From positions 1-24,524 of IMG/VR virus record IMGVR_UViG_3300010885_015998: a DNA stretch of 24,524 nt; one strand, given 5' to 3'. Below are positions 1,218 through 24,524 of this stretch, one piece after another; position 1 is the first letter of the stretch, and each line of letters opens with the position of its first letter. The translations under genes and the position numbers were made by a program. The notes beneath the pieces were generated by a model that was not told where the DNA came from, ran no database searches, and saw nothing but the letters and a program-made list of their open reading frames with translations. This DNA is from a virus.

Positions 1218-2501
1218 TTATAGCATTTCAATAATACTATTTTCAGAATCATTAGAAGGCTGTAAACTTGGGTTGGTATCTGAAGGTCTTCCACCTTGAG
1301 AAGAATCTACCGCACTACCTGCTATATTCTGTGGTACTCTAATTTGATGGCTTAATCCATCATCTAAGGGATTATATCTTAGCCCCCCTCTAGCTTCATT
1401 AGGGGTTAATATTCCTGCATTAACTAATGTAGAATAATAAATAGCTCTTGTACGTTCGTCTGACCTTAAGCAGGATACTTCATTAATATCAGGTCTAATG
1501 ACCATATCAGGGCCAAAGAAATTAGCAAAAGCACTACAAAACTGAGTTAATATAGGCATAACAGTATGAGTGTAAAATAGTACTTGATTAGCGCTTATAT
1601 TAGCGTTATTACCACTTTTTAACAGTACATAGGGAACTCCTAGTGCTTTAGCAATATCTTGTTGAACACGTTCTACAGAAGCTTCAAAATCAAGCTCAGA
1701 AAACTTAACCTGACCGAAAGGACTTATTTGTAAGCCACCATCTAATATAGCAGGAGATCTTGCTCCTCCAAATATAGTAGAATAGTTTTGTCTCCATTGC
1801 TCTAAAACACGTTCTTTAACTTTAGGACTTAATACTGATTCTGTTGTTAATACAATACCAGGAACGCCATTATTTTTAAAGAACTGACGTTGAAAATTGA
1901 TTAAATAATAGTAGAGTTCTATCAAACGTTTAATTGATTTAAGTTTAGGAGCACCTCTATATATACTACTATCATTATCAGCTTTAATATGAATAATCTC
2001 GTCTGATTCAAACCTAAGATGGGTATCTTGACGAGTTGTTTGTCTATTATAATTATATACAGAAGATTGACTAATATTTCTAATTAAGAAGTTATAATGA
2101 TTAATAAAAGTTTTTCTATCAGGAATTATCTCCATATCGTTAGCTGGTAATAAATATAAATTAGTCTTATCATAATAAAAAAATGCATTACCATCTAATA
2201 AATAATCTAGAAAAGCTCTTCTAAAAAACTTTACTCTATCTTCAAAAGGATTAGGTGCTCTATTTAAAAGTTTATCTACTTTTTTAACAGCTCCGCCACC
2301 TTCAACAATTATAGGAACTTCAACTAGTCCGCTAATAATTAATTCTACTGCCCTATTTACAACTTCAACTTCTCTATAAGCTTGCTTATAGTCTGCAATT
2401 ACTTCAGGACTTACATAAGGTTGTGCAGCTGCAAGAGATGGTTGAGCAGGGTTAAGTTTTTCTGCAACCCATTGTCTCCATGCTGGAATTTCTCTAGCCA
2501 T
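1218..2501 (-). CDS. Portal protein, HK97 family
   Basis: Forms the dodecameric ring at the special vertex through which DNA enters and leaves, and to which the neck attaches. It is 427 aa, normal for HK97-type portals. Recognisable features are the N-terminal VVNRAVELIISGLVEVP helix/strand (48-63), LLNRAPNPF (78-86), LLDGNAFFYYD (101-111), and the C-terminal core with ALGVPYVLLKSGNNANIS, the stretch usually found near the tunnel region of this family. The start at 2501 is supported by GGGAGAAG directly upstream. It overlaps the HNH gene by 8 bases, so the two are probably translationally coupled. It is followed by the protease gene. Confidence 0.95.
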   Translation of the reverse strand: MAREIPAWRQWVAEKLNPAQPSLAAAQPYVSPEVIADYKQAYREVEVVNRAVELIISGLVEVPIIVEGGGAVKKVDKLLNRAPNPFEDRVKFFRRAFLDYLLDGNAFFYYDKTNLYLLPANDMEIIPDRKTFINHYNFLIRNISQSSVYNYNRQTTRQDTHLRFESDEIIHIKADNDSSIYRGAPKLKSIKRLIELYYYLINFQRQFFKNNGVPGIVLTTESVLSPKVKERVLEQWRQNYSTIFGGARSPAILDGGLQISPFGQVKFSELDFEASVERVQQDIAKALGVPYVLLKSGNNANISANQVLFYTHTVMPILTQFCSAFANFFGPDMVIRPDINEVSCLRSDERTRAIYYSTLVNAGILTPNEARGGLRYNPLDDGLSHQIRVPQNIAGSAVDSSQGGRPSDTNPSLQPSNDSENSIIEML

Positions 2502-2868
2502 TCTTCTCCCTTTGTAGCTCTAACCATTTAATAATTTTTGGTGACATATGATTACTATACCTTTGACCGTAGATATTATGCAATCTTTCATGATGAGTTT
2601 TACAGAGAGTATACAAATTATCATTACTCAATCTATCAATCTCATCGTCATAAAATTTAACTCGTATTTCTTTTATAGCATCTACAGAATTAACTTCGGT
2701 AATTTTATTCTTAACGCACCAAGATTCAAATAATTGTGAAATAGAATACATATGATGAAGTTCTAATCTATCTGTACACTTACAAACATAGCACTCATCT
2801 CGTAGTTTATAATCTTTTTTAATATAATCCCTGATATATTTAATAGGGATTCTTCTCAAATTACTCAT
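2494..2868 (-). CDS. HNH endonuclease
   Basis: A 124-aa HNH nuclease. A zinc site is visible as CYVC (27-30) paired with CKTH (89-92). The HNH core is LELHHMYS (H38/H39), an Asn in SNDN (82-84), and the following THHERLH (91-97). It sits between terminase and portal. In several HK97-like phages an HNH protein encoded beside TerL is needed for terminase cleavage and packaging, and this position suggests that role rather than a free-standing homing endonuclease. A selfish HNH inserted between genes cannot be excluded from sequence alone. The start has only a weak ribosome site in the 74-base gap after TerL, but the end overlaps the portal start, which argues that the gene is integrated in the operon. 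Confidence 0.88.
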   Translation of the reverse strand: MSNLRRIPIKYIRDYIKKDYKLRDECYVCKCTDRLELHHMYSISQLFESWCVKNKITEVNSVDAIKEIRVKFYDDEIDRLSNDNLYTLCKTHHERLHNIYGQRYSNHMSPKIIKWLELQREKNG

Positions 2869-2942: not shown

Positions 2943-4220
2943 TTATGATGTGCTACCATAAATAGAAGCAGATTTCTTAACATAAGTATATACAGCATAC
3001 CTTACAGCGTCTGAAGCATGTGAGTTATCATCATGAATTGTTGTTGGTTTATCAGTGTTGGGATTCCACTTATAGTTTGAAAGAGCCATAAAAGCTTGAA
3101 AACCTGTTTCACTATCAAATATAAGCTTATCATGGTCAATTAGGGCGCATAAAAAGTTTATACCATCATTTACAGATTTAATTGCGTTCTCACAATAGAT
3201 ATCATAATCACCAGCAAAATCAGCTCGTAACTGTTGTGCGGCAGAATCAATATAAATCATATCAATACCCCACTGCTCTTCTAATTTTTTAATATTATCT
3301 GCAAGTTCAGAAGTTGTTATTTCACCAGAAATATATTCATCAATTACATAGTATTTATCACCATCAGTAGCTATAACAATAAAAGCATTTTTATCTCTAT
3401 AACCAACGTCAAACCCGCCTATAATTTCATAACGATTTAAATTAGCTTTAACATGACTTAAATCTTTAAGGTGCTTATCAGCATTTAAATTATAAACCTG
3501 CATCTCAGTAGTAGTCCAATCACACTCATATTCTTGAGCAAAGAGTTTATGAGAAGTAGAACGTCTAGCTTCTTCTATATCTTTCATATTAAGTAACGGG
3601 TTAGCCCTCCAAGTGTATAAAGCACTACCCCATTCTTCGTAATCCTCGGTTTGTCCTCTTAGATAATAATCATGTAGATAGTTAGCCTTACCACGAGGCG
3701 TAGAAATAAATAGTGCACGCGAATCAGGATATGTAGAGAGAGCAGGACGAAGATCGCGAGTAAAATATTCATCATCAGGAATAATTGCAGCTTCGTCTAC
3801 AATTATAAGATGAGCAGCTCGTCCTACTAGAGAATCTCTATTATTTGCTGAAAGAAGCCTAAAAGTAGAACCATTTATAAGCTTAACAATTTTATCTTTT
3901 TGATTAAAACGGTCTACCTCAAGTTGTAGATTACGAATCATATCAGTTACATAATCCCAAATAATAGAGGATAGCGTAAAATTAGGAGCTATAACCATAA
4001 CCTGTGTTCCAGGTTCAAGAAGTTTAGCAAGTGCTAATATACCGGCGGCAAGGGACTTGCCTGTACGTCGGGCTGATATATGAGTCCAGAAACGATAATT
4101 TTCTAAACCATCTACCATTCCCCATTGACTTTCATTAAATTTAAGACCTTTACTTTGTCCAACAATAATCTTATCGAGTAACTTCTCGACAGGAACTTTA
4201 AAAAATTTTTCTTTAGTCAT
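2943..4220 (-). CDS. terL: Terminase large subunit
   Basis: ATP-driven motor and nuclease that packages phage DNA into proheads. 425 aa, typical length. ATPase domain: Walker A SARRTGKS (49-56), Walker B LIIVDEA (138-144), coupling motif FISTP (171-175). RNase-H-like nuclease domain: GGFDVGYRDKNAF (268-280, acidic D271), MIYIDSAAQQLRAD (321-334, D325), and HASDAVRYAVYTYV (401-414, D404), giving the three metal-binding acidic residues. AAGG precedes the start. The preceding small membrane gene stops 1 base upstream. No recognisable small terminase subunit sits beside it, which is the normal location. Confidence 0.97.
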   Translation of the reverse strand: MTKEKFFKVPVEKLLDKIIVGQSKGLKFNESQWGMVDGLENYRFWTHISARRTGKSLAAGILALAKLLEPGTQVMVIAPNFTLSSIIWDYVTDMIRNLQLEVDRFNQKDKIVKLINGSTFRLLSANNRDSLVGRAAHLIIVDEAAIIPDDEYFTRDLRPALSTYPDSRALFISTPRGKANYLHDYYLRGQTEDYEEWGSALYTWRANPLLNMKDIEEARRSTSHKLFAQEYECDWTTTEMQVYNLNADKHLKDLSHVKANLNRYEIIGGFDVGYRDKNAFIVIATDGDKYYVIDEYISGEITTSELADNIKKLEEQWGIDMIYIDSAAQQLRADFAGDYDIYCENAIKSVNDGINFLCALIDHDKLIFDSETGFQAFMALSNYKWNPNTDKPTTIHDDNSHASDAVRYAVYTYVKKSASIYGSTS

Positions 4221-4221
4221 T

Positions 4222-4509
4222 CTATACCTTAATAAATTTTAATAGTGAAAGAACAAGAGCTACAGCTCCACCAGTTGCAGAACCTACCCAAATTAATGTT
4301 CGCAAACTAACTCGACCTGTTATAGCCATTTCTCTTAAGTCTTTCACTTCACGTTGCATTATATCTAAACGTAAATCCATCTTCTCAAGTGTCTTGAGCA
4401 GTTGAGTATATCTTTCTTCACATACAGCTTCATGTGTAGATATATCTAGTCTCAATTTTTGAGTTCTTTCGTGTAATGTATCTACACTAGATTCAATGTC
4501 CATAACCAT
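4222..4509 (-). CDS. Small coiled-coil protein with C-terminal transmembrane segment (holin-like size)
   Basis: 95 aa from the first ATG. I prefer the second ATG at 4503 (93 aa), because AGGA lies 8 bases before it but almost touches the first. Residues 8-62 are charged with regular hydrophobic spacing (LLKTLEKMDLRLDIM), consistent with a coiled coil. Residues 72-93 (LIWVGSATGGAVALVLSLL and following) form one clear membrane segment ending in KFIKV. That is a tail-anchored layout with the coil probably in the cytoplasm. Its ribosome site overlaps the stop of the outer-membrane-type gene upstream, so the two are coupled. It could be a holin or antiholin-like lysis protein, or an inner-membrane partner of the upstream gene. 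No family was recognised with certainty. Confidence 0.7.
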   Translation of the reverse strand: MVMDIESSVDTLHERTQKLRLDISTHEAVCEERYTQLLKTLEKMDLRLDIMQREVKDLREMAITGRVSLRTLIWVGSATGGAVALVLSLLKFIKV

Positions 4510-4513
4510 CTTC

Positions 4514-6532
4514 CTAGAAATTAATTTTTAACCCAACCATACCGATAGCTGCGGTATAATTTTTACTTTTATCAAAACCAGTAGTTAAGTCAATAGAAAC
4601 ATTAGAAAATAGTTCTTTTTTAACAGAAATACGAACTTGCCCTACAGTAGCAAAATCTTTAGACTGAGTTATTCTTGTTTCAACTCCTAGCCAATCAATA
4701 TCATATCTAATACCAGCATAAGGTCTAGCTTCAAACATACTAGATTTTTCTGGTAGAGTAGATAGAAGAGATGATCCTGATTCAATAGCAGAGTCAACTT
4801 TTGCTTCATTCAATACTACACCGACTAGAGGTCTTAACCCAAATATTTCTTTACCGGAATAAAAGGTAATATCAGCATAATAGTTTTTAACTTTTACTTT
4901 ACTGCTATTAGATAGAGCAAAGATTGGTAGAGAAATAGTTGTAGAATATTCGGTTACTCCAAAACCAAGAGAAGTCTTAGTCCATATATAATTTTGTTTA
5001 TTTAGTGCATATGCTGTAGCTCCATAGTTATCAGAGCTAAAAGTAGTATTTAAATAATCATGACTATTACCTTTATTAAGAGTTCCAGCTATACCTAGAG
5101 TAGTATTCTCAAATGACTTTTGAACACCAAAAGCTATAGAGCTAGTACGCACACTACCAGTAGTTTTTGTGTATCCTAAAGAAGGAGTAGCCCAAGCACC
5201 ATCTTTAGTAGCTAGAGTGTCTACTAAAAATGGATTAAAACTACGAATTGCTATAGCATCTTTTAAACCAGTAGCTGATACTGAAGCTTTTTGGTTAGAC
5301 GAAGCTGTTTGAATAATTTTATCAGTAACAGTTGTAGTTATTACTTCATTAGTAGTTGTAGATATAGGAGTAGCTATATTAGTAGTTGAAGTTGTTACTA
5401 CAGGAGTACCTTCTGTAGAGTCTGTAGAATTATCACTATAAGTAGTAATAGTTACAGGAATAGTTGTAGTTGTTGTTATCTTAGGAATAGTAGTAGTTAC
5501 TACTGAGGTAATTGGTGTTGTTTTTACTGTAATAGTTGTTCTAGGGGTTTCACCAACAACAGTTGTTGTTCTTATTACATCAATGGTTTTATTATTCTTG
5601 ATAGCAGTATCACGAGCAGTTGCAGTGTAGGTAGTTATTCCATTTGTTACTGTATTTGTAGTAACCGTAGTACCTCTTGTTGATGTTGAGCTTGTAGTAG
5701 AAGTTCCATCAGAGGTAGAAGAAGTTACTTTTGAAGTACCAGGAGCAGTTGATACAACTGTCTTTGGTGGAGGTGCGCCCCCATTAGACGCAGCCGCACC
5801 GTTACCATTAGCACTAATTGTACCACCAACAGTACCAGCAACGATGCCTTTAATAATGTCATCAAGAGCAGTTACATTCTGCTGTTGTGCAGTAGTACCA
5901 GATACATTGAAACGAGAAGCATCAAGCCAGTTAGTATCAGCAACAGTAACAATAGTACCAGTTACCCCTTGTCCAAGATTACCAGCACGGCCAATCCAGC
6001 TCATACCAGATACAGCACCGTTAGAATCAGAAATAAGTGGAATACCTTGACTGTTTGTAATAACAGCAACAGCCGCATAGTTAACAGTGATACCAGCAGT
6101 CATATACTTTGTATTGACATTGCTTTCAATATTAGCTGCATATGCGTTGTTAGTTCCAATGGTAGTTGTACCACCACCAAGAGCAGTAATAAGTGCAGCA
6201 ACAGAATTGTTTCTTGACTGGCAGCAACCAGGATTTTCAGTTACGAAATAAACGAATCCACCATTGGTTACATATGTTTGATAAGTAGTTTGCTCTGTAG
6301 TTGTAAGAGCCGCAGAATATCTTAGGTCCCATACCTGCTGATATGTGCCTTTAGTTGTTGGAATAGATGCTAAATTGGTAGTTACAGTTACAGTATGACC
6401 AGCTGCTTCTAAACGACTCTTGACATTATTGGTAACTTGATCGTATTGTGCATCAATAACAAGTACGTTATCAGCAAAAGATAAAGATGTAAACGCGAAT
6501 AAAGCGATTATAGCCGCTAGAATATTTTTCAT
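4514..6532 (-). CDS. Secreted surface protein with autotransporter-like layout (signal peptide, passenger, Thr-rich linker, C-terminal beta-barrel)
   Basis: 672 aa. Residues 1-20 are a classical signal peptide (MKN, a hydrophobic run, cleavage after SFA). Residues 21-240 look like a Rossmann-type alpha/beta domain: NVLVIDAQYDQVTNNVKSRL, then QQVWDLR (66-71), GGFVYFVTENPGCC (91-104). This resembles glutamine-amidotransferase-like or DUF4350-like folds of bacterial surface proteins, with no obvious catalytic triad. A Gly/Ala/Pro stretch (241-257) leads to a linker extremely rich in Thr and Ser (258-410). Residues 420-672 show alternating polar/hydrophobic strands and end GMVGLKINF, with hydrophobics at -1, -3, -5, -7 and a terminal Phe, matching the outer-membrane beta-barrel signal. 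AGGAG precedes the start. It is unusual among phage late genes. I infer insertion into the host outer membrane, perhaps for surface masking or superinfection exclusion. A virion role is less likely given the signal peptide. Confidence 0.8.
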   Translation of the reverse strand: MKNILAAIIALFAFTSLSFADNVLVIDAQYDQVTNNVKSRLEAAGHTVTVTTNLASIPTTKGTYQQVWDLRYSAALTTTEQTTYQTYVTNGGFVYFVTENPGCCQSRNNSVAALITALGGGTTTIGTNNAYAANIESNVNTKYMTAGITVNYAAVAVITNSQGIPLISDSNGAVSGMSWIGRAGNLGQGVTGTIVTVADTNWLDASRFNVSGTTAQQQNVTALDDIIKGIVAGTVGGTISANGNGAAASNGGAPPPKTVVSTAPGTSKVTSSTSDGTSTTSSTSTRGTTVTTNTVTNGITTYTATARDTAIKNNKTIDVIRTTTVVGETPRTTITVKTTPITSVVTTTIPKITTTTTIPVTITTYSDNSTDSTEGTPVVTTSTTNIATPISTTTNEVITTTVTDKIIQTASSNQKASVSATGLKDAIAIRSFNPFLVDTLATKDGAWATPSLGYTKTTGSVRTSSIAFGVQKSFENTTLGIAGTLNKGNSHDYLNTTFSSDNYGATAYALNKQNYIWTKTSLGFGVTEYSTTISLPIFALSNSSKVKVKNYYADITFYSGKEIFGLRPLVGVVLNEAKVDSAIESGSSLLSTLPEKSSMFEARPYAGIRYDIDWLGVETRITQSKDFATVGQVRISVKKELFSNVSIDLTTGFDKSKNYTAAIGMVGLKINF

Positions 6533-8737: not shown

Positions 8738-11700
8738 TTAGAATGGTTTTACTATAGATGAAGTTGTTATGTCATAACTTCCATATATAGAAAAGTTATA
8801 TTGTGATGCGTCTGTAATACTAGAATCTTGACAAGTTAGTAATACAGTATTTCTTTGATCAGTTAAAGCTGCTATATTAGTTCCTGATGACTGTGTTATA
8901 CCTAAATTAGAGGTTGGAGGAGTAAAAGCTCCCGTATATACACCAATATTTTTTACGATTCTAATATTATTAATATAACCCTTAAAAGGGGTATTAGCAG
9001 TTGAAGTAGGGATATATCTAGATCCGATTTTTGCCTGTGTATAAATTTGATTAATATTATAAGCAGTTGCATTAGAACCTTGTAATACCCCATTTACATA
9101 CATGTAATTAGTACCAGATATTTTTACAAGAGCAATATGATACCAAGTATTAGTAGTAAATACGTATGGTATAGCTAATATCACTCCACCACCATTACCT
9201 TGCCAAACAAGAGTACCATTTGGATAGCCGGGTAATCCAAATCCTAGAGTCCAAGAGTTAGTAAGAATGTATTTAGTATCTATTAATGTTTGATTAGTTA
9301 AAGGACTAGCTGAGTTGAACCATAGTTCAACAGTAAAGTCGCTATTACCAAATGCTATACCAGATGTTAATCCACCAGAAATAGTACCAATATTAGCATC
9401 TACAGGGTTCCAAGCTAAATATTGATACTTACCGTTAAAATACGTACTAGCTGAAACTATTTTTTTAGTATAATCATCTAATTTTCCCGCAACTTCATTT
9501 ATACCAGTAGAATATTGTTTTCTTACAGTTTTTGAAACAATAGGAGTACTGGATGTAGGCGCAGTAGCAGATGTTGTTATAGCAAGAGAATTACCAGAAT
9601 TATCTACTGTAACAGAAGATGATTGACAAGTTAAAAGTGATGTTCCTGTAATGGCAGTTAATTGTTCTTTAGAAGGCACAAAGTTATTTGGGTATAATGC
9701 TTTACCTCTAACAATACGAAGATTAGAGATATGACCATTATAAAATGATATTCCGGTTGTATAACCATTATTTAGATACCCAGTAGAACACCATGACTGG
9801 GTACCATCCATTGCTACTACTGTAGCTGTTCCAGAATTTATACCATTTATATAAAGTATAGCAGCCCCGGAGTTAACACTTACAGCAATATGAGTCCAGT
9901 TAGTTAATAATACTGAGGCTGCTGTTGTTATAGTAACAATACTACCTCCCGTACTTGGTCTAACATTAAGCACAATCCTTCCTGCAGAGTTCATCTGAAT
10001 AGAAAAATCTCCAAAAGAGCTGGTATTTGTATTAGATAATTGATATAGTTCATAACTACCCGAAGGATTTGCTAGAGGGTATATCCACATTTCTATAGTA
10101 TAAGTATTATTAATTACAGGTAAAAAACTAGATGTAGGGATATTTAAATAACTAGATGAACCATTAAATATTGTAGAGTACAGTAATGAGGGTATAGTAT
10201 TAGTTGTTGCTGATCCTACATTAGTTATAGTAAGTGGTGTAGTAGAATTATCAACTATTGAAGAGTTTTGAAAAGTTAACAATGTAGTTCCTGATATAGC
10301 TTTTAGAGGGTATAAATTATCAGTAGAAAAATTAGATGTATATACAGCAGTTCCTTTTACTATACGGAAATTTGATATTGTACCTTTTAAGTATTGTATA
10401 CTTCCAGGATTTCTACCTATATTTAAAGTGTTTGGTGAAAGAAAAGAATTACTAATACCTGTAACAGGAGTAAGAGCTGTTCCATTAACATAGCAATTAA
10501 GAGTAGTACCACTTCTTACTATAGCAATATGTGTCCAAACATTAGCGCTCCATGTATAAGTAAAAGTAGCTAATATAGCACCTGTTGTTAAGAATACACT
10601 AAGTGACGTTGTTTGTAGATAAAAACCAATTTGGTTAGCAGAACCACAATCCATCACAGCATATGCACCAGTAGATGTGCCGGGTACTATAGGAAAGAAA
10701 AACCACCCTTCGATAGTGAAATCACCTGGTAAAGCAAATGCTGTAGAGTTTCCAGGAATTGTTACGTACTGGCTAGTTCCATTAAGTTGAACTCCATATT
10801 TACTTCCTCCAATACTAAAGTCATCTAAATAATTATTAGTTAATAATGAACCACCAGGAGTTTCTCTACTTATAGGAAACTCCGGTTGATTATATGAAAT
10901 AGTATTAAATGGGACTATTGATTTTGAAGAAACAACACTTCCGGCATTAGTTATTGTAAAATTATTTAAAGAATTATCAACAATTTGTATATCTTGACAA
11001 GTTAGTAAGCTTGTTGATGTTCCTGTAATAGCAGATATGTTTGTCCCACTTGATTGTGTTGATGTTAATGGAGTTGTTGGTGGAGTAAATGCACCTGTGT
11101 ATACGCCTATACCTTTTACTATACGTAGAGACGCTATAAATCCATTCAAAAAACTATTAGACGCTGAAGCATTTCTACCTATAAACAAACTTCCTGATGA
11201 ACTGTATAAACTAGAATCAGGGTATGTAACGCCTTCTTGCGCACCGTTTACGTATAATTTAGTAGAACCACTAATCCTCACAACAGCAACGTGATACCAT
11301 CTACCTATGACTATTGTAGTTGTACCAGATATTTGATAAGCGCCACTTGAATATAAATTAAAAACGCCACCGTTTGTATTAATAATTGGGCTTAATGGCG
11401 CAGATCCACCGCCGTTAGGCGAACCGTCAATAATTTGCCCGAGACTAGTGCTATTAAGATACACCCAAGTTTCTATAGTAAAATCTCCCGTCGTACCAAA
11501 AGCAAATGTAGAACTAGCTGGTACTGTTAAATACTGTGTAGTACCATTAAACTGATAACTATAAGGTGCAAGACTCCTGAAAGTATTTAAAGCAGAGATA
11601 TTATCACCTGTATTTGTTATACTAAATGGTGTAGTTGTATTATCTTGAATAACAGAAGATTGGCAAGTAAGTAGTTGTGTTCCTGCTACTGCTGTTAAGG

Positions 11701-14700
11701 GAGAGGTTGAAGGGGTAAATGAGCTAGCATAAATAGCTATTCCTTTAATAATACGGAAATTAGAAATATAACCGTTTAGATAATACGGAGTACTCATAGC
11801 ACCTATAGTAATACCATTTTGTCCAAAACTATATGTACTCGGTGTTCCAGTAATAGTTGATATACCTTGCGTACCATTAATAAAAGCTAATAAAGTACCA
11901 TTACTGCGGACGACAGCAACATGATACCAGGTACTTGTAGATGGTGTCCATGGTATTGTTATTTTGACACTTAAAGCACCGTGGTTAGCAAATGTTAAAG
12001 TGCTTGCTGTATATCCAAAGTACCATTTATCACTAGTGCTTGTTCCAACAGCATCATTTTGTGCGATCGGAGTTATTACAGAAAAAGCATTAAAATTTAC
12101 CCAAGCCTCGATAGTAAAATCACCAGTTCCAAAAGCAAATCCAGCATTAGCAGGAGCATTTATATACTGACTACTTCCGTTAAATAAAATACTATAATAG
12201 TTATTTGTAAGAGCAGGAGTTTGATAAGTACCAAAAGGACTCTTTGTTGAAGTTGTTAGCAAATCTCTAGAAGTTGTTGTTAGAGCTGTTGGTAAGGTAC
12301 TAATAGTCGAATTATATATAGAAGTATCAGAAAATTCACCATACTTTTGGCAAGTCAATAGAACAACCTGAGTAGTATCTGTAATAGCGGAAATATTTGT
12401 GCTGCTTGATTGTGTCCTAGCTAATGGCACTAATGGCACAGTAAAATTAGCAGCAGAAGTGCTCGCGCCGCTATAAATTGCTGCGCCTTTAACAACACGA
12501 ATATTAGACATATATCCTGTTGTTAAGTACGTTGCTCCAGCAACGCCATTAATCTGCAGCGTTTGTGACGAAACGGAAATATTTTGCGCCGCTGCGCCTG
12601 AGTACACTTGAATACCATTAGAGTATAATTTTATTGTTCCGCTAGTTCTAACAGCTGCAATATGTATCCATTGATTTGTTGATAGACCTCCGGTTCCTTC
12701 AAAAAATGTTGTTGCTGAACCGTCAGAAACACCAAATCTTAAATTTGAAGCAGCAGAATTTCCCTGTGTAAATAACCATGCACTAGTTGATGCAGTCCCT
12801 GTCCATGAACCAACAAATGCACCACCTATTAGTGTTGTTGTTATATATACCCAACATTCAACAGTAAAATCACCAGTTCCAAATGCAAAACCTGAGTTAG
12901 CTGGTACAGTAATATACTGAGTACTACCATTAAAACTGACGCTATTAGTTAATCTCTGGGCATAAGAAATAGAAGTTTCATTAGTTAAAATAGAAGATTC
13001 GAAAGGATTTAGATCTGAAACTGATATAGTATTAGTAGGACTAAGTGCTAAATTATTTATAGAGGCATCCTTAGTAATAAAAAGACCTTTACCTGCTAAA
13101 GCATAAGTAGTACCTAAAGGATCTAAGGGTTTTATTGGATAATCATAATTTGCTATAGGAGTATATACAGAGTTTCCTTTTACAATACGAAGATTAGATA
13201 TATATCCTGCAAAAAACGAAGTTGGAGACGCAGCATCGTTACTAGCTCCTATAAAAATAGGATCAGTTCCTGTAGGAGTTACAGAAGTTGCTGAAGATAT
13301 TAATAGGCCATTTATATAAAGATATTGAGAAGTGCCCTTTCTAATCCATAAAATATGATACCAATTACTTATAGTAATAACTGCAGAGGCAGAGGTTAAA
13401 ACAGTAGACCCATTTACTTGTACGATAAAAGTACCTGTAGAGTCTACATACATTATCCAAGCTCTACCATTAGCTAATTTATATTGACCAACTACAGTAA
13501 AAGGACCTCCAGTAAGACTAGTAGGATAAATCCAAGCTTCTACCGCAAAATCTGATGCATAACTACCTAATCCTGCAGTATTAGGTACAGATAGATATTG
13601 ATTAGTTCCATTAAAAGAGTAACTATAAGCTCCTGTGTAAGGTATTGTAGAAGTAGTAGAAGTTACACTATTTGGATTAGTAATAGTATTGCCGGCAGCA
13701 TCTACTATAGTAGCTGATTGAGCAGTTAATAAAGATGTCCCACTAATAGTGGTTAGATTAGCATTAGGTCTAGTTATGGAGTTAGCAGTATAAATAGCAG
13801 TAACAGAGTCAAAGCGAAGATTTGACATATATCCTTGGAAAGGATAAAGACTAGTAGGGAATACTCCAATTCTTGCAGCACTGTTACTAATAGTTGCAGT
13901 GAAATATGAAGTAACTTCTAGACTTCCATTTAAGAATATCATTAAATTATTACTTGAATCTCTAACAAGAGCTACATGATTCCATTGATTTAGAGGAATT
14001 ACAGTAGTTCCCCAAATAGAAATAGACCCTACGAAATTATAAAATAATAGTTTATATCCTGAATTATTATCTATACTAAAATTCCAATAATTTGCCGAAC
14101 TATCATAACAACTATATATTGTTTGAGTTGCTGATGCAATTGTATATAACCAAAGTTCTAAAGTAAATGGTCCAGTAGTTGGAACAGGGGTTCCTGAAGG
14201 ATACATATAAGTATTTATATTATTATTAAAATATATACTTTTTTCTGATGGAGTAAAAGGATTTTTATAAGAAATAACAGGCGCATTAACATCATATATA
14301 GCATGTACATAAGAAGAGTTATCTTTAAAAGTAGTTGATTGACAAGTAAGTAAGCTTGTTACAGAACCTTGAGATACTAGTGGAGATGTGGGAGGCGTAA
14401 CTACTGCTGCAGTATAACGCGCAACACCTTTAGTGATACAAAAATTAGATAACAACCCTCGAAAACGATAGGCACCGTAGCTTGTTGCTCCGCTTACAGG
14501 AATCACACCTTCGGAAGCTATAGTAGCAGCACTACCATCGTCATAAATTATACTAGTTGACATACCTGAGCTAAGAGAAATTCTTACTCCATTTTTATAA
14601 GCATATATATTAACACCGCTACGAACAATTGCTATATGTTGCCACACGCCGACATCTGCAGCTACATCAGTAGTTGAGTTAACTGTCCACGCACTACCAG

Positions 14701-15016
14701 TAGCATTAGCAACACCGATATTCCAAAATTTTGTAGAACCATTATATTCAATATACACACTGGCTAATATGGAAGCTGATGCTCTTTTAAAGTATACAGC
14801 ACGATTTAAGTTGTCAGTAGTAGTAGGAAGCGCCCAAAATTCAATAGTCCAATCTACAGCAGCAAAATTTAACACTGTATTATGAGGAATATAAACTGAT
14901 TGAGTAGTACCATCAAACTGCCAGCTATATGCTCCGTCGCTCATACTCACCTCGTCAAATGAGTCTCCGACTAACATGTCTCCTTGATATGTGAGTGTTC
15001 TAGTAGTAGTTGCCAT
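8738..15016 (-). CDS. Giant multi-domain LamG/concanavalin A-like lectin protein (nine domains), probable tail fibre or adhesin
   Basis: 2092 aa. I count nine copies of a roughly 200-250 residue unit, each opening 'y-S-x-x-FNGttQYltvP' followed by 'DFTiE-W-y'. These openings lie near residues 34, 262, 470, 696, 946, 1155, 1411, 1618 and 1860. Each unit then has 'W-H-i-A-v-r-sg-..-l-y-i-NG', 'gyiSNlRivkg-a-YT' and a linker 'LLTCQss-i-DnS'. This is the LamG-like jelly-roll (Laminin_G_3 type) carbohydrate-binding fold. There is no signal peptide, enzyme domain or membrane segment. Lying among fibre genes, it is probably a virion surface or host-glycan-binding protein (inference). The short N-terminus (about 30 aa) may attach it to the virion. 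Its start is 3 bases after the previous stop, with a weak ribosome site, so it is probably coupled. Units differ in base composition; see findings. Confidence 0.88.
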   Translation of the reverse strand: MATTTRTLTYQGDMLVGDSFDEVSMSDGAYSWQFDGTTQSVYIPHNTVLNFAAVDWTIEFWALPTTTDNLNRAVYFKRASASILASVYIEYNGSTKFWNIGVANATGSAWTVNSTTDVAADVGVWQHIAIVRSGVNIYAYKNGVRISLSSGMSTSIIYDDGSAATIASEGVIPVSGATSYGAYRFRGLLSNFCITKGVARYTAAVVTPPTSPLVSQGSVTSLLTCQSTTFKDNSSYVHAIYDVNAPVISYKNPFTPSEKSIYFNNNINTYMYPSGTPVPTTGPFTLELWLYTIASATQTIYSCYDSSANYWNFSIDNNSGYKLLFYNFVGSISIWGTTVIPLNQWNHVALVRDSSNNLMIFLNGSLEVTSYFTATISNSAARIGVFPTSLYPFQGYMSNLRFDSVTAIYTANSITRPNANLTTISGTSLLTAQSATIVDAAGNTITNPNSVTSTTSTIPYTGAYSYSFNGTNQYLSVPNTAGLGSYASDFAVEAWIYPTSLTGGPFTVVGQYKLANGRAWIMYVDSTGTFIVQVNGSTVLTSASAVITISNWYHILWIRKGTSQYLYINGLLISSATSVTPTGTDPIFIGASNDAASPTSFFAGYISNLRIVKGNSVYTPIANYDYPIKPLDPLGTTYALAGKGLFITKDASINNLALSPTNTISVSDLNPFESSILTNETSISYAQRLTNSVSFNGSTQYITVPANSGFAFGTGDFTVECWVYITTTLIGGAFVGSWTGTASTSAWLFTQGNSAASNLRFGVSDGSATTFFEGTGGLSTNQWIHIAAVRTSGTIKLYSNGIQVYSGAAAQNISVSSQTLQINGVAGATYLTTGYMSNIRVVKGAAIYSGASTSAANFTVPLVPLARTQSSSTNISAITDTTQVVLLTCQKYGEFSDTSIYNSTISTLPTALTTTSRDLLTTSTKSPFGTYQTPALTNNYYSILFNGSSQYINAPANAGFAFGTGDFTIEAWVNFNAFSVITPIAQNDAVGTSTSDKWYFGYTASTLTFANHGALSVKITIPWTPSTSTWYHVAVVRSNGTLLAFINGTQGISTITGTPSTYSFGQNGITIGAMSTPYYLNGYISNFRIIKGIAIYASSFTPSTSPLTAVAGTQLLTCQSSVIQDNTTTPFSITNTGDNISALNTFRSLAPYSYQFNGTTQYLTVPASSTFAFGTTGDFTIETWVYLNSTSLGQIIDGSPNGGGSAPLSPIINTNGGVFNLYSSGAYQISGTTTIVIGRWYHVAVVRISGSTKLYVNGAQEGVTYPDSSLYSSSGSLFIGRNASASNSFLNGFIASLRIVKGIGVYTGAFTPPTTPLTSTQSSGTNISAITGTSTSLLTCQDIQIVDNSLNNFTITNAGSVVSSKSIVPFNTISYNQPEFPISRETPGGSLLTNNYLDDFSIGGSKYGVQLNGTSQYVTIPGNSTAFALPGDFTIEGWFFFPIVPGTSTGAYAVMDCGSANQIGFYLQTTSLSVFLTTGAILATFTYTWSANVWTHIAIVRSGTTLNCYVNGTALTPVTGISNSFLSPNTLNIGRNPGSIQYLKGTISNFRIVKGTAVYTSNFSTDNLYPLKAISGTTLLTFQNSSIVDNSTTPLTITNVGSATTNTIPSLLYSTIFNGSSSYLNIPTSSFLPVINNTYTIEMWIYPLANPSGSYELYQLSNTNTSSFGDFSIQMNSAGRIVLNVRPSTGGSIVTITTAASVLLTNWTHIAVSVNSGAAILYINGINSGTATVVAMDGTQSWCSTGYLNNGYTTGISFYNGHISNLRIVRGKALYPNNFVPSKEQLTAITGTSLLTCQSSSVTVDNSGNSLAITTSATAPTSSTPIVSKTVRKQYSTGINEVAGKLDDYTKKIVSASTYFNGKYQYLAWNPVDANIGTISGGLTSGIAFGNSDFTVELWFNSASPLTNQTLIDTKYILTNSWTLGFGLPGYPNGTLVWQGNGGGVILAIPYVFTTNTWYHIALVKISGTNYMYVNGVLQGSNATAYNINQIYTQAKIGSRYIPTSTANTPFKGYINNIRIVKNIGVYTGAFTPPTSNLGITQSSGTNIAALTDQRNTVLLTCQDSSITDASQYNFSIYGSYDITTSSIVKPF
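9420..14935 (-). repeat. Nine diverged LamG-domain repeats inside the 2092-aa gene
   Basis: The start of each unit, marked by the 'FNG..QY' codons, lies near 14915, 14230, 13605, 12930, 12178, 11550, 10785, 10163 and 9437. Spacing ranges from about 620 to 770 bases. Units 4 and 5 share residues GFAFGTGDFT at the same place, and unit 6 has the near-match TFAFGTTGDFT. The others are more diverged. The variable spacing comes mainly from the linkers between 'LLTCQ' and the next domain. Domain duplication followed by divergence or exchange is the simplest reading. Confidence 0.8.
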
Positions 15017-19554: not shown

Positions 19555-22500
19555 TTAAGCTAATCCTCCACCCATAGAAACGAAAGTATTAGCTGCTACA
19601 CAAAGAACTGTAACTAATCCATATTGAGCTAGTGTCCTATTTCCAGTGGTAGCTGTTCCTACAAGTCTCATAGTAACATTTACTCCCTGAGTTATAGTTT
19701 GGGATGAACCACTATTATTATAAATAACAACGCTATCTCCAACAGCAAAAGTAGTATTAGGAACTATTACGCCACCTGTAGTTATAGATATATGCTTACC
19801 TACATCACTAGTGGCTAGAGTGTAAGAACTTGATTGAGAATTTTGTGGTACGTTACCTGTACTATAGGGACCCCCATTTAATCCTACTCCACCCTCAAGA
19901 CTTCTTATCTCAACAAGAGAAGAAGTATAAGGTATAGAAGTAAATGTTAAAGTACTACCAGATATAGTATAGTGAGTAGTAGGAGCTTGAAGTAATCCAT
20001 TAAGTGTTACAATTATATTATTTACATTAGCAATAGGATTAGTTAAAATAAAATCAGTCTGTGTACCATTAGCAGTAAAACTTTGAGTAGTAGCATTACC
20101 AACTATTACGTTACTACTTCCTCCTGCATTTATCCACTGAGTATCGGTACCTGTAGAAGACAATACTTGTCCAGGACTACCTAAGGATCCATTAGCACTT
20201 ACAGCATTAATACTAATAGTATTACTAAAAGTATGTACGTTAGTCCAGTTATAGCTAGCATCTTGATTTACTCCACCACCTCCGCTAAAAGTAGAATTAG
20301 CGTAAGCAGCGTAAGCAGTTAAATTAGATTGTACTGCATTTACGTTACCACTTGCAGTACCAAAAGTACTATTAGCATAAGTAGCGTAAGAAGTTAAATT
20401 AGATTGTACTGCATTTACGTTACCACTTGCAGTACCAAAAGTAGAATTAGCATAAGTAGCGTAAGAAGTTAAATTAGATTGTATAGTATTAATATTAGTA
20501 TTAGTACCTGCTATACCATTAGTTAAACTAACTACATTGCTAAATAATATACCTATATTTGAAGCATAAGTTGGTGTTATAAGTTGTAAAGCTCCAATAT
20601 CAACTTCATTTTGGGATATACGAGTTCCATAACTTACACTAGTTGATTGTAAAGTAGCTATAGCAGCATTAGAACCTGTTAGTCCTACAGTTAAATTAGC
20701 TATATTACCAGTTAATACAGTGACATTAGTACTAAATAACATTGATACATTATTTTGTAAATCAGCGATAGCATTATTGGCAGTAATTAAATTATTTTGT
20801 AGAACTAATATATTAGCTTTATTAGTAGCAACATTAGAATTTGTATTACTTAAGTCTAATCTTATAGTAGCTATAGAAGTATTAGCTCCTGACAAGCCTC
20901 CCTGTAAATTATTAATATTAGCAGTAGCATTAGAAATGCTACTAGAAAGAGTTATGTAAGTTGAATAATCATTTGAACGTAAATTAGCAGTTTCAGTAGC
21001 TATTGTTGTAAGTATGTTAGCTCCATTAATAGTAAGAGTTCTTACATTAGCAGTAGCTAATCTTAAGTTAGCTAAATTAAAACTACCATGAGCTATGTCT
21101 ACAGAAGTAGAAGGATCTTCTTTTGTATAATCTTTAAATAAGAACCAGTCTTTAGATGTTGAAGATCTAAATAATCCAGAACGAGCACTAGTATCGCCAT
21201 TATTATAATGACCATATATACCCATATCTATAAGGTCATTTACTGTATTATTAGCTGCTATGCCTAAGAAAGAATCTCCATAAGAAATTGTAACAGCATC
21301 TACGCTATAGGTATTTCCGGATAAAAATAGATTACCAAGAATATTTACATCTTTTTGGAAAATAACATTTTGACCTGTTATAGCAGCTACAAGAGTATTA
21401 GTACCAGCTAACCCAGTTTGTAGTGACGTAATCTTAGTATTAGATCCGGTTAGTCCAGTCTGTAAATTAATAATATTAGTATTAGAACCAGTTAGTCCAG
21501 TTTGTAAGTTAGTTATATTAGTTGAATTTGTAGAAACTAAAGTATTTGCAGCAGTTAAGCCAACTTGTAAGTCATATATGGCAGTATTAGAACCAGTTAA
21601 TCCGGTTCTTAAGTTATTTATAGTAGAATTAGCACCTGCTAACCCACCTTGTACGTTAATAATATTAGTATTAGCACCTATAATACCACTTGAAAGAGTT
21701 AAATAAGTAGCATAATCATTTGAATTTAGAGTAGTGACCTCACTAGCTATAGTAGTAAGTATATTAGATCCATTTATAGTTAAAACTTTCACATTAGCAG
21801 TTGCTAATCGTAGATTAGCTAGCTCAAAACTAGCCACACCTATATTAATTGTAGAATTAGTAGAAATAGTTGGAGTATAAGTCCTAAATAGCATCCAATC
21901 TTTAGAGGCCGCTGATCTAAATAAACCTGTGTGATTATTAGCAGCACCATCATAATAGGTAGCATATAAGCCTACATCTACAGAATCTGATAGTCTATTA
22001 TTATTTGCTAGTGCAAAGAAAGTGTCACCTGTTATCACTGTACCTGTAGATAAAGAAGTAGTGTTTCCTGTTAAAAATAAATTACCTTGAATGGTAACAT
22101 CTTTTTGAAAAATAACATTATTATTAGTTATAGCAGTTACAAGGGCATTAGTTCCTGATAATCCGGTTTGCAAGTTAGTAATTTTAGTATTAGAACCTGT
22201 TAAACCAGTTGTAAGATTAGAGGTTATACTATTAAAAATATTATAAGTAGTATAATCATTAGCACGAGCACTAAGTAGTGTAGAAGCATCATTAGAATAT
22301 GCAGAATTTAAAGTAGTTCCATCATTAGCATAAGCTGCTAATAAAGTTAAATAATCATTAGCACGAGCTGTAAGTATAGTAGAAGCATCATTAGCATAAG
22401 CTGAAAGTAGTGTAGCTCCATCATTTGAATATGCTATATTTAAAGTAACATAATCATTTGCGTAGGCATCCCTTAAGGTAATACTATCATTAGAGTAAGC

Positions 22501-24524
22501 TGAAAGTAGTGTAGAAGCATCATTAGAATAAGCAGCTAGTAAAGTAGCATAATCATTAGCACGAGCAGTAGATAGTGTACTTCCATCGTTAGCACGGGCA
22601 CTAAGTAGTGTAGAAGCATCATTAGAATAAGCAGCTAGTAAAGTAGTATAATCATTAGCCCTAGCACTAAGTAGTGTACTAGCGTCATTGGAATAAGCAG
22701 CTAATAAAGTAGTATAATCATTAGCGAGAGCAGTGAGAAGAGTGGCACCATCATTAGAATAAGCATTTAGTAAAGTAACACTATCATTAGAATATGCAGC
22801 TAGTAAAGTAGCATAGTCATTAGATAGAAGATTAATTCCTGAAGAATAGACACTAGTAGCATTAACCTTACCTATTCTAAGATTACCTAACGTAAAGTTT
22901 CCTTTAGTTATGTCAATATAGGTATTACCTTCAAGATCTATATCATATCTTGAAAATAACATCCAATCTTTAGTGTCAGAGGATCTAACGAGCCCTGTAT
23001 GACTATTAGCAGAACCACTCCAATAATGTCCATAAAATCCTATATCTAATAAGTCATTTACTGTATTATTAGCTCCTAAAGATAATAGAGTATCACCAAA
23101 ATTAATAGTTTGAGAAGTTATTAAAACTGAATTACCAGTTAGAAATAAATTACCACGAATATTAACATCTTTTTGAAAAGTAACTGCTTCATTAGTTATA
23201 TTATAGATAGCAGTAGTAGTATTATTTACATATGACTGAGTAAATGCATTACTCTGTACCCCACCGTTTGGAAAAATTATATTTCCAGAAGGATTAAACA
23301 CCCAACTTTTGGTACTAGAAGAATTATCACCCGCTAATATTGTTATAGAACTATTTGCAATTACTTTAGATACTCTACTATTAGAGATATTAGAAGTATT
23401 TTCATACCACTCTATCGAAGATCGACCATTAGCACCTGTAGCAAGAAATTTTAATGCTATATTAGATGAACCAGTTATACCTTCTCCGCCAGTAATTACT
23501 GACCCTATAGATAAATTAGCTCCAGGTAATACAAAAGAAGATCCAAAATTATAATTACCAGTATTAGTACTTAAAATAATATTAGCATTAGAACTTGTTA
23601 TAGTACTAGGTATAGATAAAACACCACCTGAAGTAAAAGTAAAATTACCACCAGCTCCCTGTATAACTACGTTACTACCCCCTGCACCTTGTATAATACT
23701 AGGAATAGAAACAACACCGCCTGAAGTAAAGGTAACGTTACCACCAGGACCTTCAATTACTACGTTACTACCCCCTGATCCAGTAATAGTACCACCAGCA
23801 GGCATAATAAAACGTCCGATATGATTATCGAAAGTAAAAGTACTTCCAATACTAGTAATATTAACGAATCCAGTTATACTTTCTATATTAAGATCGCCAT
23901 TACTAGTTTTTATAGATCCATTGGCTGGTAAATATATAGTACCATGAGTATCAAAATTCCAAAGATTATTACCACCAGTACTTATAGCATTATTACCATT
24001 AGCATTCACACGGAAATATTGATCATCATTTCCGAGATATAGATCTGTAATACTTTGATTACCGCTAGTAATATGTATATGATTACCTTCTGCAGCAGTG
24101 GGATAAATAACAATCTTTTGGGCAGCGTTAGATCCACCAGAAGGTATAAGTTCGATATTATTATTACCTTCAGTTATAATACCGCTTTGTGGTAGAACTA
24201 AGTCACCATTACTATTAAAAATCCAAGAACCATCATTAGTATATATATTTACAACACCATGAGTACCATTAGAAGCAGAACCAGCTACTATATTTACTGT
24301 GCCACCTGCATAACCACCGGCACCTGCTGTGAGGTTTAGAGCGCCGCCTTGATTATACCCACGTCCTGCGTCAATATTTATATAGCCACCGAACCCGACG
24401 CCTACATTATCAGCATCTCCGGCGTAAATCTTAATATCACCACCGTTAGTGTCAGCATCTCCAGCCCATAGATATACGTCACCACCCTCACCAGTACCGC
24501 TACCTCTTTGACCCTGAATTATAA
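19555..24524 (-). CDS. Giant modular tail fibre, 5' end outside window (at least 1655 aa)
   Basis: The frame is open past the right edge: codons from 24522 to 24010 contain no stop and encode typical fibre sequence (GGDVYLWAGDADTNGGDIKI). The GTG at 24009 is therefore not the true start. Order from the right: six 'GG-x-[VIL]-x-[IL]-x-AG' units (24500-24260, beta-helix-like); WIFNSNGDLVLPQSG and IELIPSGG segments; a 93-base duplication (23630-23815); KDW module 1 (about 23195-22830); 18 hendecad repeats (22821-22228); 14-residue coils; KDW module 2 (about 22130-21740); more coils; KDW module 3 (about 21380-21000); coils; three 25-residue repeats (20490-20287); a TQSFTANGTQTDFILTNP domain; and a C-terminal SYTLATSDVGKHISITTGG domain common in phage fibres. 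Probably a host-recognition fibre or a long virion appendage. The module families are ones I associate with T4-like aquatic phages. Confidence 0.9.
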   Translation of the reverse strand, partial: IIQGQRGSGTGEGGDVYLWAGDADTNGGDIKIYAGDADNVGVGFGGYINIDAGRGYNQGGALNLTAGAGGYAGGTVNIVAGSASNGTHGVVNIYTNDGSWIFNSNGDLVLPQSGIITEGNNNIELIPSGGSNAAQKIVIYPTAAEGNHIHITSGNQSITDLYLGNDDQYFRVNANGNNAISTGGNNLWNFDTHGTIYLPANGSIKTSNGDLNIESITGFVNITSIGSTFTFDNHIGRFIMPAGGTITGSGGSNVVIEGPGGNVTFTSGGVVSIPSIIQGAGGSNVVIQGAGGNFTFTSGGVLSIPSTITSSNANIILSTNTGNYNFGSSFVLPGANLSIGSVITGGEGITGSSNIALKFLATGANGRSSIEWYENTSNISNSRVSKVIANSSITILAGDNSSSTKSWVFNPSGNIIFPNGGVQSNAFTQSYVNNTTTAIYNITNEAVTFQKDVNIRGNLFLTGNSVLITSQTINFGDTLLSLGANNTVNDLLDIGFYGHYWSGSANSHTGLVRSSDTKDWMLFSRYDIDLEGNTYIDITKGNFTLGNLRIGKVNATSVYSSGINLLSNDYATLLAAYSNDSVTLLNAYSNDGATLLTALANDYTTLLAAYSNDASTLLSARANDYTTLLAAYSNDASTLLSARANDGSTLSTARANDYATLLAAYSNDASTLLSAYSNDSITLRDAYANDYVTLNIAYSNDGATLLSAYANDASTILTARANDYLTLLAAYANDGTTLNSAYSNDASTLLSARANDYTTYNIFNSITSNLTTGLTGSNTKITNLQTGLSGTNALVTAITNNNVIFQKDVTIQGNLFLTGNTTSLSTGTVITGDTFFALANNNRLSDSVDVGLYATYYDGAANNHTGLFRSAASKDWMLFRTYTPTISTNSTINIGVASFELANLRLATANVKVLTINGSNILTTIASEVTTLNSNDYATYLTLSSGIIGANTNIINVQGGLAGANSTINNLRTGLTGSNTAIYDLQVGLTAANTLVSTNSTNITNLQTGLTGSNTNIINLQTGLTGSNTKITSLQTGLAGTNTLVAAITGQNVIFQKDVNILGNLFLSGNTYSVDAVTISYGDSFLGIAANNTVNDLIDMGIYGHYNNGDTSARSGLFRSSTSKDWFLFKDYTKEDPSTSVDIAHGSFNLANLRLATANVRTLTINGANILTTIATETANLRSNDYSTYITLSSSISNATANINNLQGGLSGANTSIATIRLDLSNTNSNVATNKANILVLQNNLITANNAIADLQNNVSMLFSTNVTVLTGNIANLTVGLTGSNAAIATLQSTSVSYGTRISQNEVDIGALQLITPTYASNIGILFSNVVSLTNGIAGTNTNINTIQSNLTSYATYANSTFGTASGNVNAVQSNLTSYATYANSTFGTASGNVNAVQSNLTAYAAYANSTFSGGGGVNQDASYNWTNVHTFSNTISINAVSANGSLGSPGQVLSSTGTDTQWINAGGSSNVIVGNATTQSFTANGTQTDFILTNPIANVNNIIVTLNGLLQAPTTHYTISGSTLTFTSIPYTSSLVEIRSLEGGVGLNGGPYSTGNVPQNSQSSSYTLATSDVGKHISITTGGVIVPNTTFAVGDSVVIYNNSGSSQTITQGVNVTMRLVGTATTGNRTLAQYGLVTVLCVAANTFVSMGGGLA
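20287..20490 (-). repeat. Three tandem 75-base repeats
   Basis: The segment beginning GTTAAATTAGATTGTA on the plus strand starts at 20318, 20393 and 20468, exactly 75 bases apart. The encoded unit is NVNAVQSNLTSYATYANSTF plus five residues (25 aa). The copies differ at only a few bases. Near-identical copies lie in the 832-aa gene (17426, 17501) and diverged ones in the 213-aa gene (about 15198 and 15435). Confidence 0.88.
22228..22821 (-). repeat. Array of 18 hendecad (33-base, 11-residue) repeats
   Basis: Eighteen units without interruption, each starting Asn-Asp, for example NDYATLLAAYS, NDASTLLSARA, NDGATLLSAYA. The first AAT is at 22821 and the last unit's AAT at 22260, which is 17 x 33 bases apart, so the phase is perfect. 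Leu at positions 6 and 7 and Tyr/Arg at 10 recur, an 11-residue period that fits a right-handed coiled coil rather than the usual 7-residue one. It probably forms a rigid stalk about 200 residues long. Confidence 0.9.
23630..23815 (-). repeat. 93-base tandem duplication
   Basis: The marker ACTACGTTACTACCCCC (plus strand) occurs at 23666 and 23759, exactly 93 bases apart. The encoded 31-residue unit contains GSNVVIEGPGGNVTFTSGG in one copy and GSNVVIQGAGGNFTFTSGG in the other. It is a short beta-strand repeat in the N-terminal half of the giant fibre. Confidence 0.82.

What the first reader, a model, noticed from the sequence alone, without database searches (positions are those of the whole stretch)
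4514..6532. Phage late operon encodes an autotransporter-like outer-membrane protein
Directly visible: signal peptide, alpha/beta N-terminal domain with VWDLR and GGFVYFVTEN motifs, a roughly 150-residue Thr/Ser-rich linker, and a C-terminal region ending in a terminal Phe with alternating hydrophobics. Known: type V secretion proteins have this order and the terminal aromatic recruits the BAM complex. Inferred: the phage displays a domain on the infected cell surface, for receptor masking, superinfection exclusion or envelope remodelling. Few phage OM proteins (lambda Lom, Bor) are known, and they lack a passenger of this kind.
Basis: partly seen in the sequence, partly recalled or inferred. 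Interest (0 to 1): 0.8.

Follow-up and report, generated by a model that had tools for sequence, protein, structure and literature searches.

The report
Phage-encoded autotransporter with interchangeable passengers
This phage gene encodes a protein built like the bacterial surface proteins called autotransporters, so the infected cell probably displays a phage-made domain on its outside; close relatives with different displayed domains occur in over a hundred uncultivated phage contigs, but what the displayed domain does is unknown.

Summary
ORF 6532-4514 (-, 672 aa) has a signal peptide (residues 1-20), an alpha/beta domain (21-240), a 171-residue Thr/Ser-rich linker and a C-terminal domain ending in Phe. 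AlphaFold2 models residues 411-672 as a short helix plus 12 beta strands. The best PDB folds are autotransporter translocators: NalP (E 7e-11, TM 0.73-0.76), EstA, AaaA, Hbp, EspP, BrkA. The window sequence itself misses Pfam PF03797 (autotransporter beta-domain), but a relative 58% identical over the barrel matches it. The passenger is Rossmann-like; its nearest fold is ThuA-like, weakly supported. About 150 further IMG/VR contigs carry the barrel, the passenger or alternative passengers, many with phage terminase or T4-type capsid genes. Passengers are swapped between barrels, and two are fused to curlin repeats. Two passenger modules also occur, without signal peptides, in proteins of virion structural gene blocks. 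None is found in 50,697 cultured-phage records, but UniProt already labels two homologues 'autotransporter beta-domain' in uncultured Caudovirales. The architecture is therefore known in kind; this is an uncharacterised phage-borne variant. Receptor masking or superinfection exclusion remains a plausible, untested inference.

The parts
4514..6532 (-). complete gene, 672 aa: signal peptide, passenger, linker, 12-strand barrel
6473..6532 (-). signal peptide, residues 1-20 (MKNILAAIIALFAFTSLSFA)
   Evidence: sequence; leader conserved in relatives; no SignalP run
5813..6472 (-). passenger domain, residues 21-240; Rossmann-like, ThuA-like best fold; 92% mean column identity in family
6221..6241 (-). 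TENPGCC motif, residues 98-104; invariant in 15 diverse members; holds the only two cysteines of the protein
6320..6334 (-). VWDLR motif, residues 67-71
5303..5812 (-). Thr/Ser-rich linker, about residues 241-410; variable in length (110-174 aa) and fast evolving
5243..5275 (-). helix before the first strand, residues 420-430 (possible pore helix; low-confidence segment)
4520..5200 (-). 12-stranded beta-barrel, residues 445-671
4517..4534 (-). C-terminal beta-signal GLKINF with terminal Phe
4222..4509 (-). 95-aa coil plus C-terminal TM protein; lies between this gene and terminase in 7 records (holin-like, tentative)
2943..4220 (-). terminase large subunit, nearest T5-like phages at about 42%

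Best explanation
A phage-encoded classical (type Va-like) autotransporter. Sec would export the protein, BAM would insert the C-terminal 12-stranded barrel into the outer membrane guided by the terminal Phe, and the Thr/Ser linker plus a short helix would carry the N-terminal alpha/beta passenger to the infected cell's surface. Most likely the passenger is a ligand-binding module that covers or sequesters surface receptors, reducing adsorption by other phages or re-adsorption of progeny to debris. Shown by sequence or structure prediction: domain order, barrel fold, conservation, passenger swapping, and re-use of passenger modules in proteins of virion gene blocks. Inferred: translocation, surface exposure, binding function and the receptor-masking role. 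I put the display part at about 0.9 and the masking role at about 0.35; the confidence given is for the statement as a whole.
For: Barrel: helix plus 12 strands, pLDDT 73, pTM 0.69; best PDB matches are all autotransporters (1uyo E 7e-11; 1uyn TM 0.76; EstA; AaaA; Hbp; EspP; BrkA; AIDA-I), porins below TM 0.5. The L030 barrel is 58% identical to the window's and matches PF03797 at 8.6e-11, above cut-off. The same passenger is joined to PF03797 barrels in L059 (6.6e-18) and L064 (2.2e-14). The same barrel family carries three other passengers, two of which also sit on PF03797 barrels elsewhere (L104, L182). 43/43 complete members end in Phe; purifying selection. Viral setting: terminase on 7 of 30 and 11 of 25 records over cut-off, gp23 capsid on 15 of 35. 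Binding role: passenger modules recur without signal peptide in proteins of tail/baseplate blocks (L067; L198).
Against: The window barrel itself scores no Pfam hit, and direct profile-profile comparison with the L059-type barrels was weak (11% probability). The modelled pore helix lies in a low-confidence segment, and its position inside the barrel was not checked. The passenger model is poor after residue ~105 of the domain. No expression, localisation or ligand data; host unknown. The passenger modules were not found in the window's own fibre proteins, so self-masking is not shown for this phage.
Confidence: 0.5

Rival explanations
1. Adhesion or capture: the displayed passenger makes infected cells stick to neighbours or particles, bringing new hosts near ('sibling capture'), rather than blocking receptors.
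For: Passengers fused to curlin repeats in L070, L136 and L141; csgF, csgG and a curlin-repeat gene beside the window-type gene in L018; csgG on records of 108-202 kb. Sibling capture was proposed for curli genes of pelagimyophages (PMC7029224).
Against: No clumping was seen with the csgGF-bearing phage Melnitz (PMC9004378). No curli gene was noticed in the window record; csgG on only 7 of 30 related records.
Confidence: 0.25
2. Surface enzyme: an EstA-like arrangement in which the alpha/beta passenger hydrolyses or modifies a surface glycan or lipid.
For: NalP, EstA and AaaA, whose passengers are enzymes, are the nearest barrels; Rossmann-like passenger with ThuA-like best hit; invariant TENPGCC at a strand end.
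Against: No catalytic family match; the model of the second half is unreliable; passengers on the same barrel are exchanged for unrelated domains, which fits binding better than one enzymatic step.
Confidence: 0.15
3. Virion structural protein (fibre or tail tip) whose C-terminus happens to be beta-rich.
For: Gene lies among fibre and packaging genes; related modules occur in tail-block proteins.
Against: Conserved signal peptide across relatives; 12-strand barrel with autotransporter matches; terminal Phe; in several relatives the gene lies outside any tail-gene block.
Confidence: 0.04
4. Passive cargo: a host-derived outer-membrane gene carried without benefit, or a contaminating bacterial contig.
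For: A few related contigs (L018, L063, L070) carry FecR, CHASE2 and csg genes and show no terminase, so they could be bacterial.
Against: Window record has terminase, portal and protease; many records carry terminase or gp23; dN/dS well below 1; passenger found in only one of 84,980 species genomes at this sensitivity.
Confidence: 0.04

Closest known systems
NalP and EstA (type Va autotransporters with globular passengers)
   Same: signal peptide, N-terminal globular passenger, helix, 12-strand C-terminal barrel; best structural matches
   Different: 14-16% identity; encoded by a phage; passenger not a recognised subtilase or GDSL esterase
A0A6J5R861 and A0A6J5L9T3, 'Autotransporter beta-domain containing protein', uncultured Caudovirales phage (UniProt/BFVD)
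   Same: same barrel, 70% and 43% identical, TM 0.86-0.87
   Different: known here only by database label; passenger not compared
Antigen 43 of an E. coli cryptic prophage
   Same: an autotransporter described as prophage-encoded (PMC10653831)
   Different: beta-helix autoaggregation passenger (from memory); resident bacterial gene in a cryptic prophage rather than in the packaging/fibre region of uncultivated phages
T5 Llp superinfection-exclusion lipoprotein
   Same: phage-encoded outer-membrane protein acting on a receptor; window terminase is T5-like
   Different: small periplasmic lipoprotein (PMC9586334); no barrel, no surface passenger
Lambda Lom and Bor (from memory)
   Same: phage-encoded outer-membrane proteins
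   Different: no passenger; small barrel or lipoprotein
Phage CsgF/CsgG of pelagimyophages and Melnitz
   Same: phage-encoded outer-membrane export apparatus in aquatic phages (PMC7029224, PMC9004378); CsgG co-occurs with this family on some records
   Different: type VIII secretion pore; separate genes

Membership tests
Type Va (classical) autotransporter | N-terminal Sec signal peptide | tested here: met
   sequence features and conservation across relatives; SignalP itself not available
Type Va (classical) autotransporter | C-terminal 12-stranded barrel formed by one chain | tested here: met
   12 strands predicted; NalP and other autotransporter barrels top hits
Type Va (classical) autotransporter | passenger N-terminal to the barrel | tested here: met
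Type Va (classical) autotransporter | helix within the pore linking passenger and barrel | tested here: inconclusive
   helix 420-430 predicted just before strand 1, low confidence; position in pore not examined
Type Va (classical) autotransporter | terminal aromatic beta-signal | tested here: met
   GLKINF; 43/43 end in F
Type Va (classical) autotransporter | passenger exposed on the cell surface | not testable with these tools
   needs protease shaving or immunolabelling
Pfam PF03797 Autotransporter | score above curated cut-off | tested here: inconclusive
   window sequence: no hit; relative L030, 58% identical barrel, 42.5 bits vs cut-off 26
Type Ve inverse autotransporter | barrel N-terminal, passenger C-terminal | tested here: not met
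   order is the reverse
Type Vc trimeric autotransporter | barrel built from four strands of each of three chains | tested here: not met
   12 strands in one chain
ThuA-like / class I amidotransferase-like | fold match | tested here: inconclusive
   4jqs best hit, E 2e-3, prob 0.99, but TM 0.36 and half the model below pLDDT 50
ThuA-like / class I amidotransferase-like | sequence family match | tested here: not met
   no Pfam or NCBIfam hit
Llp-type exclusion lipoprotein | lipobox cysteine after the signal peptide | tested here: not met
   residue 21 is Asp; the only cysteines are in TENPGCC

The most novel reading that the evidence does not exclude
A widespread phage surface-display strategy: unrelated large phages (T5-like, T4-like and larger) put the same ligand-binding modules they use on virions onto the surface of the infected cell, through exchangeable autotransporter barrels or curli-type fibres, to occupy their own receptors and exclude competitors.
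Probability: 0.3. Interest if true: 0.82.

Novelty: new variant of a known kind. Interest (0 to 1): 0.6.

Why it matters
Known phage outer-membrane proteins are mostly small barrels or lipoproteins. A large, shuffling family of phage autotransporters would give phages a general means of changing the outside of an infected cell, and it makes a concrete test possible: does displaying a phage domain that is also found in virion-block proteins block adsorption? The passenger-barrel pairs also form a natural set of surface-display constructs to compare.

Tried and rejected
Pfam, PHROGs, NCBIfam and PDB sequence searches with the window protein gave nothing. The PDB sequence hits of the passenger profile were WD40 proteins (E 0.002-0.09, one nucleoporin at 0.3), judged spurious: they cover only residues 115-195 of the domain, not the conserved motifs, and disagree with the predicted fold. 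L039 and L040 matched only the last residues of the barrel and were left out. Profile-profile comparison of the barrel with L059-type barrels was weak. tblastn against cultured phages with the window protein, L059 and the CBM-like passenger found nothing; plasmids with the barrel, nothing. The window's fibre proteins share no passenger. Promoter hits do not exceed shuffles. Two papers that mention autotransporters in phage work concern YadA-type structural proteins (PMC9146016) or only a cited reference (PMC3909814). Host prediction was not possible: the only genome hit is a Mycobacterium MAG.

Full report
OBSERVATION. The ORF at 6532-4514 on the minus strand is intact, 672 aa. The window is an IMG/VR virus record of 24,524 bases. 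The gene lies co-directionally between fibre genes and a packaging block; terminase, portal and prohead protease are recognised by Pfam, and the terminase is nearest T5-like phages at about 42% identity. The leader MKNILAAIIALFAFTSLSFA is a good signal peptide by inspection, and relatives have equivalent leaders; SignalP was not available. The linker is 171 residues, 44% Thr+Ser.

FAMILY. A first scan of IMG/VR found 19 contigs encoding relatives, and scans with domain alignments extended this. The passenger is more conserved than the barrel (92% versus 75% mean column identity). dN/dS against seven relatives is 0.08-0.18 for the passenger, 0.14-0.40 for the linker and 0.10-0.35 for the barrel, so the whole protein is under purifying selection and the linker is the loosest part. 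All 43 complete barrel-type members end in Phe; the generic beta-signal pattern occurs in 9 of 239 unrelated ORFs of at least 150 aa, six of them from one cluster of small outer-membrane barrels.

BARREL. AlphaFold2 on residues 411-672 with 17 sequences gives a helix (420-430) and 12 strands (445-671), mean pLDDT 73. Foldseek ranks autotransporter translocators first: NalP (E 7e-11 and 1e-10, TM up to 0.76), EstA, AaaA, Hbp, EspP, BrkA, AIDA-I; OmpG and other porins follow at TM below 0.5. By sequence the window barrel has no Pfam hit, but L030, 58% identical over the barrel, scores 42.5 bits against PF03797 with a cut-off of 26. Membership is therefore supported by fold and by a close homologue, not by a direct hit. 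The low-confidence helix fits the pore helix of classical autotransporters, but its location inside the barrel was not checked.

PASSENGER. Residues 21-240 model as a Rossmann-like beta/alpha domain for about the first 105 residues (pLDDT about 50-88 by blocks) and poorly afterwards. The top PDB fold is a ThuA-like protein (4jqs, E 2e-3, probability 0.99, TM 0.36), a lead only. The TENPGCC segment is invariant in 15 diverse members and holds the protein's only two cysteines; a vicinal disulphide or ligand site is my inference. In 84,980 species genomes the degenerate-pattern scan found the domain once, inside a large repeat protein of a Mycobacterium MAG.

MODULE SWAPPING. The same passenger sits on PF03797 barrels in L059 (6.6e-18) and L064 (2.2e-14) and on curlin repeats in L070 (1.9e-6). 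The window-type barrel carries other passengers: a 195-aa domain in L019, L023, L029, L030, L032 and L034, a second in L033 and a third in L035 and L036. Scans with two of these found 65 and 54 loci. Most complete ORFs have a hydrophobic leader and end in Phe; L104 and L182 match PF03797 (2.6e-17, 9.4e-9) and L136 and L141 carry curlin repeats (L141 below the curated cut-off). Counting by hand and removing duplicates, about 150 contigs beyond the window are involved.

ARE THEY PHAGES? Terminase was found over the cut-off on 7 of 30 and 11 of 25 records examined and T4-type gp23 capsid on 15 of 35, including records of 139-344 kb. A minority (L018, L063, L070) lie beside csg, FecR and CHASE2-cyclase genes with no terminase found and may be bacterial. 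CsgG also occurs on 173 kb and 202 kb records that carry terminase, in line with published phage csgGF genes (PMC7029224, PMC9004378).

LINK TO VIRION PROTEINS. L067 encodes a 743-aa protein without a signal peptide that contains the window passenger (46%) and a domain 28% identical to the L035 passenger (E 1e-10), followed by a protein matching a 'baseplate wedge tail fiber protein connector' family. L198, in an 88 kb record with gp23, has a protease-like protein whose C-terminal domain is 44% identical to the L035 passenger; it lies between head-closure and fibre-connector genes and sheath stabiliser, terminase and sheath genes. That these proteins are in virions is inferred from gene position. 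The window's own fibres share none of these modules.

HOW IT PROBABLY WORKS. Sec export, BAM insertion and passage of the passenger through the outer membrane follow from established type V secretion (PMC6555100). Because passenger modules recur in virion-block proteins and are exchangeable, a binding function is more likely than an enzymatic one, and receptor masking is the simplest use. That last step is inference, with adhesion/capture and surface enzyme as live rivals. T5 Llp shows that receptor blocking from the outer membrane is used by phages (PMC9586334), although by a different design.

NOVELTY. No relative was found in 50,697 cultured-phage records, but BFVD contains 70% and 43% identical proteins already labelled 'Autotransporter beta-domain containing protein' from uncultured Caudovirales, and Ag43 is described as a prophage-encoded autotransporter. 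No paper in the library describes the family in the searches I made. I rate it a new variant of a known kind: what is new is the breadth, the module swapping and the overlap with virion-block proteins.

Noticed in passing
L018:1238-8416: Window-type gene directly upstream of csgF, csgG, a curlin-repeat gene, FecR and a CHASE2 guanylate cyclase; contig may be viral or bacterial.
   Followed up: partly
L067:488-2716 and L198:2456-4843: Passenger-type domains in signal-less proteins of tail/baseplate gene blocks, one fused to a protease-like domain.
   Followed up: partly
L136, L138, L139, L141, L142, L144, L146: CBM-like passenger joined to a different C-terminus (curlin repeats in the two tested) with no barrel: possible curli-type display of the same passenger.
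   Followed up: partly
window 4222-4509: 95-aa coiled-coil plus C-terminal TM protein conserved between this gene and terminase in 7 related records; holin-like but unassigned.
   Followed up: no
window 8738-15016: 2092-aa protein with nine concanavalin-A-like (Laminin_G_3) stretches, E 3e-146: a large lectin-type fibre or surface protein.
   Followed up: no
window 19555-24522: 1655+ aa protein with many tandem 'YSNDASTLLSARANDY'-like repeats; runs off the window end.
   Followed up: no
L004, L005, L006, L009, L015, L018, L019, upstream of the gene: A BPL_N/glutamine-amidotransferase-like protein (cluster c7) is often encoded upstream of this gene.
   Followed up: no
L071:2-3292: The passenger domain occurs inside a large repeat protein of a Mycobacterium MAG, on a contig with transporter-like genes.
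   Followed up: partly
window 2494-2868: HNH-like ORF overlapping the portal gene start (phrog_3497, E 1.6e-16).
   Followed up: no
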